A stretch of DNA of 43,635 nt. Origin: Verrucomicrobiia bacterium. GTDB taxonomy: Bacteria; Verrucomicrobiota; Verrucomicrobiia; Limisphaerales; UBA8199. Positions 35,501 through 37,676 of this stretch are shown here, one piece after another. The stretch is from the NCBI GenBank assembly GCA_035946615.1, contig DASYZB010000096.1:1-43635 (forward strand). Reading direction: 5' to 3'. Numbering within the stretch: the first letter of the stretch is position 1; the number at the start of each line of letters is the position of its first letter. Below the pieces are notes generated by a model that saw only the letters and a list, made by a program, of their open reading frames with translations, had not been told where the DNA came from and made no database searches. A program made the translations under genes and the position numbers.

Positions 35501-36210
35501 GAACCAAAATCATCTTCATCACCGGCGCAGATACGGGGGTCGGCAAGACTTTGCTGACATCGCTGCTCCTGGCTCATTTGCGGTCCCTTGGCGGGCAGGC
35601 CTTGGCCATGAAACCCTTTTGCTCGGGCGACCGGGCGGACGCCAGGCTGCTCCGTTCCCTTCAGGGCAATGAACTCACGCTCGATGAAATCAATCCTTTC
35701 TATTTCCGCCAGCCGGTCGCCCCATGGGTTGCTGCGCGAAATCATAGCCGCGCAATTGCGCTGTCTGAGGTCCTGAAGCCCATTCGACGCATTCAGGCTC
35801 GTTGCGATTGGCTTCTCGTTGAGGGGATTGGTGGGGTGCTGGTGCCGTTGGGCGAGGACTTTAGCGTGCTGGACCTCATCGGCTCGATGGCCGGCGATGT
35901 TCTGGTGGTAGCTCGAAATCGGGTCGGAGTCATTAATCATACCCTTCTTACCATTCGAGCGCTCAAAACCGCCGTTTGCGCCAACCGACGCACTCAGGTG
36001 ATCCTGATGGGGACACGGAAACCAGACGTTTCCTCACGCACCAACGCGGAGGTTCTTTCCTCACTGCTACCCAGAGTCCCCATATTCTGTATTCCATTCC
36101 TGGGTGCGCAGTGTCGTTCCGCGCGGTCCGACAGGACCGTAAGCCATCAAATCCAAGAGACTCTTTCCCGAATTCTTGATCACCCATTGGGGGCGCACCA
36201 AGCCGTTTAG
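35497..36210 (+). CDS. bioD: dethiobiotin synthetase with a non-ATG start
   Basis: 237 residues if started at CTG 35497, which overlaps the gspK stop (C-TGA). This start is required to keep the P-loop TGADTGVGKT (residues 9-18); the first ATG at 35551 would remove it. Other motifs: KPFCSGDRADARLL (substrate lysine region), LLVEGIGGVLVPL (BioD EGxGG). The enzyme makes the ureido ring of dethiobiotin from DAPA, CO2 and ATP. No other biotin genes are nearby. It is the last gene of the gsp run and ends 65 bases before ndk on the opposite strand. Alternatives for the start (ATC or CTG 35488) are less likely. Confidence 0.85.
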   Translation: MRTKIIFITGADTGVGKTLLTSLLLAHLRSLGGQALAMKPFCSGDRADARLLRSLQGNELTLDEINPFYFRQPVAPWVAARNHSRAIALSEVLKPIRRIQARCDWLLVEGIGGVLVPLGEDFSVLDLIGSMAGDVLVVARNRVGVINHTLLTIRALKTAVCANRRTQVILMGTRKPDVSSRTNAEVLSSLLPRVPIFCIPFLGAQCRSARSDRTVSHQIQETLSRILDHPLGAHQAV

Positions 36211-36274: not shown

Positions 36275-37465
36275 TTAGCCCCGGCCAGCCTCTACCGGGC
36301 GCCCGTAGAACTGTTCGACTATGTGGCGGAAACCATTCTCGCCCATCTTTACAATCTCTATCTCACGGCGAGCGTTTTCTTCCGAGTCGCTCGCGTGGGC
36401 GGCGTTGACCATGATAGTCTGGCCAAATTCGCGCCGAATAGAGCCCGGCGGGGCCTTCGAGGGGTCTGTGGGGCCAAGAATATCGCGGATTTTGCGCACC
36501 GCTTCCACTCCTTCATATACCAGCGCAATGCACTTCTCGGTACCCGGTTTTTTCTGTTCTTCAGGAGTGGTTTCGGAGGGGGCGCGTCCGGACATAAACC
36601 GGACGATATTTTCGAACTGCGCATCGCCGAAAACGGGGCCCACCACGTTGCCGAGCTGTTGTTCCTGCTCCGGCCCGAGCCGCAGACCCATCTCCTTTTC
36701 AATCGCTGCTCGGGCTTTTGCGCCAACCACATCCTTCAGTTTGGTCCGCAGGACTTCACGGACCGGTCCATAGAAATCGACAGCCTGAGCCACGCTCATG
36801 CGATGCAGCTTAACTGCAATGATAAACAACCCGCTGCGGGAGAAAAAATCGATCATATTGCCGGGCCGCCCGGTTGGAAAACGGAAATTCTCCGGCTTAA
36901 TCAGCACCAGGGTTCTCTGGGGCTTATCGTTGGGCTGATAAGCGTTTACGTTTTCGAGAATGCCGCCGTCCTTATCGGAATAGCGGGCCCAGATTCGCAG
37001 CTTCGCTTCGGCCTCGTCGGGAGTTGGGGCGGCCAGTACTGCCGGCTCGAAATAACGGACCTGGCCGTTTTCATCCATGATGAGGTCGCCGTAGGTATCG
37101 CGGATGGTCTCGCCACCGCGCCGGTCCGCGCTGATATTGCCAACGACCGAGCGGGTCTTGCGCACCGCGTCTTCGCCCTGAAAGAGCAACATCATAACGC
37201 GCCGCCGCCGACCGGACTTGGGATCGGCTGAAAAGTTCTGGAGGATGTACCTGTAAATCAGCTCCTGGATTTGCCGGTCCTGGGGGTCATTGGCTGAGAT
37301 GGTCTGGTCCGAGTATTCCTTCACCAACTCGGGGCTGGGGGCAAACATGCGCGCCCCCACCATTTCCAGGCCAGTCCGAGTAATCAACCGGCTCAGAATG
37401 CCGCCGGTGCGCGACTTGTACAACGAATAGGGCGTTATGATGACGTAGGCGAGTTCCTGCGGCAT
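36275..37465 (-). CDS. ndk: tandem nucleoside diphosphate kinase, two NDK domains
   Basis: 396 residues, against about 140-150 for ordinary NDK. Domain 1 (residues 1-150; LAYVIITPYSLYKSRTGGIL, AVRKTRSVVGNISADRRGGE, TIRDTYGDLIMDENGQVRYF) keeps the fold but has no His at the catalytic place. Domain 2 (about 175-390) begins RTLVLIKPENFRFPTG and has LVYEGVEAVRKIRDILGPTD, a 70-residue helical insertion containing GPVFGDAQFENIVRFMSGRA, and the catalytic signature NAAHASDSEENARREI with His357. It would transfer gamma-phosphate among nucleotides through His357 only. ATG 37465 is chosen; the frame runs 26 codons further upstream through basic, proline-rich sequence that overlaps the zinc-ribbon gene. 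Confidence 0.85.
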   Translation of the reverse strand: MPQELAYVIITPYSLYKSRTGGILSRLITRTGLEMVGARMFAPSPELVKEYSDQTISANDPQDRQIQELIYRYILQNFSADPKSGRRRRVMMLLFQGEDAVRKTRSVVGNISADRRGGETIRDTYGDLIMDENGQVRYFEPAVLAAPTPDEAEAKLRIWARYSDKDGGILENVNAYQPNDKPQRTLVLIKPENFRFPTGRPGNMIDFFSRSGLFIIAVKLHRMSVAQAVDFYGPVREVLRTKLKDVVGAKARAAIEKEMGLRLGPEQEQQLGNVVGPVFGDAQFENIVRFMSGRAPSETTPEEQKKPGTEKCIALVYEGVEAVRKIRDILGPTDPSKAPPGSIRREFGQTIMVNAAHASDSEENARREIEIVKMGENGFRHIVEQFYGRPVEAGRG

Positions 37466-37469
37466 ACTC

Positions 37470-37676
37470 TTACTTGGCCGAGGAAGGCTTTGCCGGTTCC
37501 GGGCTGGCGGACGAGGGGTGGGGTGCGGCCGCTTTGCCGCCAAGGATTTTAAACATCACCGTGCCGCAGGTGGGGCATTTGCCTTTAATGGCTTTGCGCC
37601 CATTCTTCATCGTTTCCTCGACCCCATCGATGATTTCCTTTTTGGCTTTGCACTTGACGCAGTATCCTTCTGGCAT
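37470..37676 (-). CDS. DUF5679-type zinc-ribbon protein
   Basis: 68 residues from ATG 37676. CVKCKAKKEI and GKCPTCGTVMFKIL form a four-Cys zinc ribbon, the DUF5679 pattern (MxxxYCVKCKxKxEI...G.CP.CGT.M.RI). The C-terminal tail is Pro/Ser/Ala-rich and probably disordered. Function unknown. It ends 4 bases before the ndk start, so the two are co-transcribed. The frame could begin 9 codons earlier. Confidence 0.85.
   Translation of the reverse strand: MPEGYCVKCKAKKEIIDGVEETMKNGRKAIKGKCPTCGTVMFKILGGKAAAPHPSSASPEPAKPSSAK

What the first reader, a model, noticed from the sequence alone, without database searches (positions are those of the whole stretch)
36275..37465. Two-domain NDK with a degenerate first half and a helical insertion
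Length is 2.7 times normal; only the C-terminal domain has the catalytic His, and a 70-residue insertion splits it. Normal NDKs assemble as hexamers or tetramers, so the fused dead domain could replace a subunit or bind regulators.
Basis: partly seen in the sequence, partly recalled or inferred. Interest (0 to 1): 0.55.

Follow-up and report, generated by a model that had tools for sequence, protein, structure and literature searches.

The report
Bacterial nucleotide kinase with fused dead twin
This environmental bacterium, like many distant relatives, makes its nucleotide-balancing enzyme (NDK) as one chain holding an active copy and a dead copy; the dead copy probably serves as a permanent partner subunit, which would give a natural test of why these enzymes must pair up to work.

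Summary
The observation largely holds. Window 36275-37465 (-) encodes 396 aa with two NDK folds. The first lacks the catalytic Lys and His. The second keeps the catalytic set and carries a helical insertion of about 43 residues in its nucleotide clamp, plus a second loop of about 17, not one block of 70.

It is not a one-off: no other NDK was detected in its genome. Of 194 sampled genomes of its phylum, 81 have only this form, 60 only a full-length single NDK and 1 both. Of 199 sampled from a second, probably planctomycete, phylum, 21 have it whole. In 124 distinct sequences the seven main catalytic residues of the second domain are invariant and the first domain never has the catalytic His.

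The first domain is not decaying: dN/dS is low, and its conservation is high at positions of the NDK dimer interface, not at the old active site. Two AlphaFold models match eukaryotic tandem NDK NME7 over both domains, though only roughly in domain placement. Best reading: a covalent pseudo-dimer whose dead half stands in for a subunit. Activity and assembly are inferred. No description of it turned up in the open papers searched. New variant of a known kind.

The parts
36275..37465 (-). tandem NDK gene, 396 aa (ATG start), the only NDK detected in this genome
36968..37465 (-). domain 1 (residues 1-166): NDK fold without catalytic Lys/His
   Evidence: PF00334 35.9 bits alone; VIA Z 15.4 to 4ane_D; 0 of 124 sequences with His at the catalytic position
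37400..37417 (-). domain 1 K17-S-R-T-G-G22 segment, nearly invariant; covers several NDK dimer-interface positions
   Evidence: K17 123, S18 121, R19 123, T20 119, G21 124 of 124; interface positions from PMC7554756
37034..37048 (-). domain 1 E140-P-A-V-L144, in the place of the Asn-x-x-His active-site strand
   Evidence: E140 and P141 124 of 124; position 144 L, F, M, I or V, plus one Y and one T
36923..36967 (-). linker (residues 167-181)
   Evidence: no long helix or strand there in the model
36350..36922 (-). domain 2 (residues 182-372): catalytic NDK domain
   Evidence: K190, Y232, R327, T333, R344, N354, H357 each 124 of 124; VIA Z 15.9, rmsd 2.4 over 132 residues to 4anc, model residues 182-376
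36617..36745 (-). helical insertion (about residues 241-283) in the alphaA-alpha2 nucleotide clamp of domain 2
   Evidence: 51 residues between Y232 and F284 in 112 of 124, 8 in E. coli; helices 225-242, 244-259, 265-292
36533..36586 (-). second, shorter loop insertion (residues 294-311) of domain 2
   Evidence: 18 residues in 113 of 124
36395..36397 (-). catalytic His357 codon
   Evidence: H357 124 of 124
37470..37676 (-). DUF5679 gene (68 aa from the ATG at 37676, two CxxC motifs), ends 4 bp before the NDK start; probable operon partner in this order
   Evidence: PF18930 53.4 bits (on the longer frame from 37703); adjacency conserved

Best explanation
It is the cell's housekeeping nucleoside diphosphate kinase, built as a covalent pseudo-dimer. 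Domain 2 does ping-pong phosphotransfer through His357. Domain 1 is a catalytically dead NDK fold that stays permanently paired with domain 2 across the classical NDK dimer interface, so that each chain supplies its own obligatory partner subunit, with one active site instead of two. The helical insertion rebuilds the lid of the nucleotide cleft, where the usual base-stacking Phe is replaced by Gln (Glu in some). Shown here by computation: two NDK folds, an intact catalytic set in domain 2 and none in domain 1, no other NDK in the genome, purifying selection on domain 1, and conservation at dimer-interface positions. Inferred: activity, housekeeping role, the pairing mode, and whether chains assemble further.
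For: Domain 2 keeps K190, Y232, R327, T333, R344, N354 and H357 in 124 of 124 sequences. No other NDK in the own genome. In 194 phylum genomes 81 have tandem only, 60 a full-length single NDK only, 1 both, 5 weak hits only, 47 none, so the two forms appear to replace each other. In domain 1 the 14 dimer-interface positions have mean entropy 0.95 bits against 1.73 for unlisted positions (23 of 5000 random draws as low; circular shifts as low 5 of 133, or 2 of 133 after thinning to 38 sequences). Active-site and trimer-interface positions of domain 1 show no such excess, nor do dimer positions in 25 single NDKs (24 of the phylum and E. coli). dN/dS of domain 1 is 0.02-0.14 in the 14 of 15 pairs that gave a value. 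AlphaFold pTM 0.83 and 0.84 for two members 65% identical; for both the best VIA match is NME7/FAP67 6u42_5O over both domains (Z 22.1, rmsd 3.7, 276 aligned; Z 21.6, rmsd 3.9, 275 aligned), against Z about 15-16 for single NDK chains. A review (passages and one section read) states that all functional NDKs are built from head-to-tail dimers (PMC7554756).
Against: No assay, no solved structure, no oligomer size. Foldseek's own superpositions on the NME7-like chains are loose (TM 0.43-0.54, rmsd 5.2-9.4 for ranks 1-14), so the placement of the domains agrees only roughly. The interface signal rests largely on one run (KSRTGG), which could instead be a ligand loop. The model is unsure (pLDDT about 58-67) around residues 191-210 and 331-360, which include the active-site loop, so the active site may need further assembly. 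47 of 194 genomes have no detectable NDK at all, so being the only NDK does not prove necessity. The match list was capped, and two tandem genomes (G167, G249) have a fourth match that I did not see in full. In the own order 7 of 58 genomes hold tandem and single NDK together.
Confidence: 0.58

Rival explanations
1. Domain 1 is a sensor: it has exchanged the NDK active site for a new ligand site (K17, R19, R26, R89, R122, D127, E140, P141) and regulates domain 2 allosterically, perhaps with the DUF5679 zinc-ribbon-like protein.
For: Nearly invariant charged residues that are not the catalytic set; E140-P141 invariant where the catalytic strand would be; DUF5679 gene directly upstream in 44 of 47 tandem genomes of the order (one search held).
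Against: Part of the conserved set falls on dimer-interface positions. DUF5679 is also present in 7 of 10 single-NDK-only genomes of the order and was found beside the tandem gene in only 1 of the other-lineage loci of the phylum (L111) and in 0 of 20 loci of the second phylum, so it is not a required neighbour.
Confidence: 0.22
2. A specialised enzyme (protein-histidine kinase or NTP-specific kinase) rather than the housekeeping NDK; the insertion and loss of the base-stacking Phe change its substrate.
For: Insertion of about 43 residues in the nucleotide clamp; the position aligned with the stacking Phe is Gln in 95 and Glu in 24 of 124; an aminotransferase gene lies directly downstream in 40 of 59 tandem loci outside the order.
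Against: No full-length single NDK in 81 of 82 tandem genomes of the phylum sample; complete phosphate-binding set; two members of one family have lost most of the insertion (19 residues instead of 51).
Confidence: 0.14
3. Assembly artefact or chance fusion.
For: The window lies in a genome of 161 contigs, probably from a metagenome.
Against: Same protein in single-contig genomes (G099, G129, G135, G209), in contigs of 4.4 and 4.0 Mb (G361, G395), and in over 30 family groups of the phylum.
Confidence: 0.01

Closest known systems
NME7 / FAP67 (eukaryotic ciliary tandem NDPK)
   Same: Two NDK folds in one chain, one active and one inactive; best structural match over both domains (Z 22.1, rmsd 3.7, 276 aligned; looser in Foldseek).
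   Different: NME7 has an N-terminal DM10 domain, its first NDK domain is the active one (PMC13256974, passages), and it sits inside ciliary microtubules. Here the second domain is active, there is no DM10, and it is the only NDK of the cell as far as detected. Common descent of the two tandems was not tested.
Canonical bacterial NDK (PF00334; E. coli ndk, M. xanthus NDK)
   Same: Fold; catalytic Lys/Tyr/Arg/Thr/Arg/Asn/His of domain 2.
   Different: One chain holds two domains; dead first domain; clamp insertion; stacking Phe replaced.
Enzymes that use a dead paralogue as partner (e.g. trypanosome AdoMetDC with prozyme, PMC5201418; only the start of the abstract seen)
   Same: Inactive homologue used as a partner of the active one.
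   Different: Here the partner is fused in the same chain, and its effect on activity is not known.

Membership tests
NDK (PF00334) | Profile score over the curated cut-off | tested here: met
   120.1 bits whole; 35.9 (residues 1-166) and 89.9 (residues 177-396) against 27; 37 of 37 order members match
NDK (PF00334) | Catalytic His, Lys and phosphate-binding residues | tested here: met
   Met by domain 2, 124 of 124 at each of seven positions; not met by domain 1 (0 of 124 with His, 0 of 124 with Lys)
NDK (PF00334) | Ferredoxin-like NDK fold | tested here: met
   Predicted model: both domains align with solved NDKs
NDK (PF00334) | Oligomer of head-to-tail dimers; NDP kinase activity | not testable with these tools
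   Only indirect: conservation of interface positions
NCBIfam nucleoside-diphosphate kinase equivalogs | Score over the curated cut-off | tested here: not met
   Best 109 bits against 155 (NF001908)
NME7 | Two tandem NDK domains in one chain | tested here: met
   model aligned with 6u42_5O over both domains
NME7 | Same placement of the two domains | tested here: inconclusive
   VIA Z 22.1 and 21.6 at rmsd 3.7-3.9, but Foldseek TM 0.43-0.54 at rmsd 5.2-9.4; predicted models only
NME7 | N-terminal DM10 domain | tested here: not met
   Only PF00334 in Pfam; the NDK fold starts at residue 3
NME7 | First NDK domain active, second inactive | tested here: not met
   Reverse order; NME7 order from PMC13256974
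NME7 | Phylogenetic placement among eukaryotic group II NDPKs | not tested
   No eukaryotic sequences were put in the tree

The most novel reading that the evidence does not exclude
An ancient PVC-bacterial NDK class that has escaped the need for self-assembly: each chain is a complete, asymmetric NDK with one active site (a pseudo-dimer), arisen separately from, or ancestral to, the tandem arrangement of eukaryotic NME7, and a natural system to test why NDKs must oligomerise.
Probability: 0.3. Interest if true: 0.7.

Novelty: new variant of a known kind. Interest (0 to 1): 0.5.

Why it matters
[quoted passage not shown] A widespread bacterial lineage in which the partner subunit may have become a dead, covalently attached domain, and in which mostly no other NDK is found, makes that question testable by simple mutation of one half. 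It also shows that the 'inactive half plus active half' design of eukaryotic NME7 exists in bacteria, where it would be the housekeeping enzyme.

Tried and rejected
Chance or assembly artefact: rejected, because the protein is conserved in two sampled phyla and in single-contig genomes. Degenerating duplicate: rejected by dN/dS and conservation. DUF5679 as obligate partner: weakened. Recent internal duplication: not supported. First halves form one group (support 100/100) on a long branch, second halves another (93/94), single NDKs a third (77/83), none nested in another (the bootstrap had not fully settled and one row, L126_N, is very long); old duplication and fusion of a diverged NDK are not told apart. 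Mobile origin: only ordinary NDK-like matches in plasmids and phages (0 of 22 and 0 of 7 matching records cover 80% of the query). Sequence profile of the family against solved structures: best hits are ordinary NDKs, NME7-like chains from rank 4, so sequence alone gives no special tie to NME7. Promoter and terminator scan near chance. I looked for model coordinates in the script box and found none. Papers: I saw titles and starts of abstracts and found no account of a bacterial tandem NDK; 'DUF5679' is in 0 papers. Passages were read in PMC13256974 and PMC7554756, no others. Subscription journals are mostly not held.

Rows dropped: before the alignment, identical proteins and two tandem proteins cut at contig ends (L020, L048), loci with under 600 bases downstream (1 tandem, 2 single). 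In one search two trimer positions fell on one E. coli position; one search counts it once. Confidence in the best explanation was lowered from 0.62 to 0.58 when the loose Foldseek superpositions were put in.

Full report
Observation. The minus-strand frame 36275-37465 gives a 396-residue protein. Pfam finds only NDK in it, in three stretches, 120.1 bits. Cut in two, residues 1-166 score 35.9 bits and residues 177-396 score 89.9 bits against a cut-off of 27. The length is 2.8 times that of E. coli NDK. The insertion is smaller than reported: 51 residues lie between Y232 and F284 where E. coli has 8, and a second loop of 18 residues follows G293 where E. coli has one or two.

Active sites. I aligned 124 distinct tandem proteins: 104 from loci. 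In domain 2, K190, Y232, R327, T333, R344, N354 and H357 are each 124 of 124. By PMC7554756 (section on the active site read) these bind the phosphates and ribose and carry the phosphate. The position aligned with the base-stacking Phe, at the end of the insertion, is Q in 95 and E in 24 of 124. In domain 1 the Lys position is T, N or S and the His position L, F, M, I or V (one Y, one T); there is no His in 124. Domain 1 has its own nearly invariant set: P12, K17, S18, R19, G21, R26, Y73, R89, G97, G109, R122, D127, E140, P141, each in at least 121 of 124.

Distribution. The nearest named relatives are mostly Verrucomicrobia, several of them titled subdivision 3, Limisphaerales or Pedosphaera (37 loci, 65-84% identity), so the window very likely comes from that order. 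The own genome has no other NDK. Of 58 genomes of the order and family, 47 have the tandem form (two of these are cut by contig ends, G001 and G055), 7 of them with a single NDK as well (G004, G015, G023, G024, G025, G046, G048; that of G004 is weak, 66 bits), 10 only a single NDK and 1 none. Of 194 genomes drawn from the phylum, 82 have the tandem form (counted with the window's own). With the Pfam search of the same genomes: 81 tandem only, 1 both (G135), 60 single only, 5 with a weak hit only, 47 none. The counts are not independent, since relatives share their state. In a second phylum, reached through a genome titled Phycisphaerae (G251), 21 of 199 genomes have a full-length match and one more has it split over two contigs. 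G251's own copy is 70% identical and may be contamination or transfer; the other 20 are 41-47%. Of those 199 genomes 45 are listed and 154 are not; no handle listed other than G251 had appeared before, which fits a different phylum. The tool does not name it.

Phylogeny and selection. In a tree of 26 first halves, 26 second halves and 25 single NDKs (24 of the phylum and E. coli), first halves form one group (100/100), second halves one (93/94) and single NDKs one (77/83); the bootstrap had not settled. The first halves sit on a long branch. For 15 pairs that share no sequence (85-98% identical), dN/dS in domain 1 is 0.02-0.14 in the 14 that gave a value; in the two core parts of domain 2 it is 0.00-0.11.

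Where domain 1 is conserved. PMC7554756 lists dimer-interface, trimer-interface and active-site residues of one NDK (figure legend). Converted to E. coli numbers by a fixed offset and mapped by alignment, the 14 dimer-interface positions of domain 1 have mean entropy 0.95 bits against 1.73 for unlisted positions; 23 of 5000 random draws were as low. Under circular shifts, which keep neighbouring positions together, 5 of 133 were as low, and 2 of 133 after thinning to 38 sequences under 60% identity. The trimer set (62 and 61 of 133) and the active-site set (26 and 26 of 133) of domain 1 gave no signal. In domain 2 and in single NDKs the active-site set is the conserved one (0 of 133 each) and the dimer set is not (48 and 95 of 133). 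So domain 1 has lost the constraint of catalysis and carries one at the pairing surface. The weak point is that much of the signal lies in one run, K17-G22.

Structure. AlphaFold models of the window protein and of a 65% identical relative have pTM 0.83 and 0.84. Both halves show the NDK order of strands and helices; the insertion is helical (225-242, 244-259, 265-292). The best matches among solved structures are NME7 / FAP67-like chains from ciliary doublets over both domains: VIA Z 22.1, rmsd 3.7, 276 residues, and Z 21.6, rmsd 3.9, 275 residues. Foldseek ranks 1-14 are all chains of 332-378 residues from doublet-microtubule entries, but with TM 0.43-0.54 and rmsd 5.2-9.4, so the placement of the domains agrees only roughly. 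Single NDKs reach Z about 15-16. A pTM above 0.8 for two domains of similar size suggests a defined placement. Confidence is low around 191-210 and 331-360; the latter holds the active-site loop, and in one NDK that loop folds only on assembly (PMC7554756), so further assembly of chains is possible.

Neighbours. DUF5679, a small protein with two CxxC motifs, is encoded 4 bp upstream in the window. In 46 tandem loci of the order it lies directly upstream in 42, in the same open frame in 1 (L052), is untestable in 1 (L048) and absent in 2 (L028, L055). By genome, 45 of 47 tandem genomes have it, 44 beside the gene, but so do 7 of 10 single-only genomes (one search held). Outside the order, a class I aminotransferase follows directly on the same strand in 40 of 59 loci; two subgroups, whose representatives share 22% identity, occupy this place in 21 and 19 loci. 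It was found in 0 of 45 loci of the order, 0 of 22 single-NDK loci and 0 of 20 loci of the second phylum. One subgroup is called aromatic amino acid transaminase by NCBIfam (538.6 bits, cut-off 377); the other matches aspartate aminotransferase models below their cut-offs.

Mechanism. The most likely scheme is a covalent pseudo-dimer: domain 2 catalyses, domain 1 supplies the partner surface that NDKs need. Steps shown by computation and steps inferred are separated in the Best explanation section. Whether three chains form a pseudo-hexamer, or the chain works alone, is open.

Known or new. In the open papers searched, tandem NDKs are described in eukaryotes (NME7 and other group II members; PMC13256974, passages), and I saw none described in bacteria (titles and starts of abstracts). 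By kind it is an NDK; by architecture it is a new variant, convergent with or distantly related to NME7, from which it differs by the order of active and inactive halves and the lack of DM10.

Noticed in passing
loci L071-L127 (tandem NDK loci of the phylum outside the window's order): A class I aminotransferase gene directly follows the tandem NDK in 40 of 59 loci, and two distantly related subgroups (representatives 22% identical) fill the same slot; found beside 0 of 22 single NDKs.
   Followed up: partly
window 37470-37676 and its counterparts in the order: DUF5679 (two CxxC motifs) directly upstream of the tandem NDK in 42 of 46 loci, gap under 55 bp in 40 of them; in L052 it shares one open frame with the NDK.
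   Followed up: partly
genomes without any NDK match: 47 of 194 genomes of the phylum sample show no NDK of either form; 42 of these are at least 90% complete and at most 5% contaminated. How they make NTPs was not examined.
   Followed up: no
L118, L119 (family f51): Two genomes have lost most of the helical insertion (19 residues instead of 51) but keep the rest of the tandem protein: a natural deletion variant.
   Followed up: partly
L055 / G251: A genome titled Phycisphaerae carries a tandem NDK 70% identical to the window's, far above the other genomes of its phylum sample (41-47%), and no other NDK match; contamination of the assembly or transfer.
   Followed up: partly
L017, L018, L019: A second, diverged single-domain NDK type, with an insertion before the catalytic His, in some genomes of the order.
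   Followed up: no
window 35551-36210: Dethiobiotin synthase-like gene (TIGR00347, 113 bits) convergent with the NDK; among the loci compared it was found beside the NDK only in the window's own genome.
   Followed up: no
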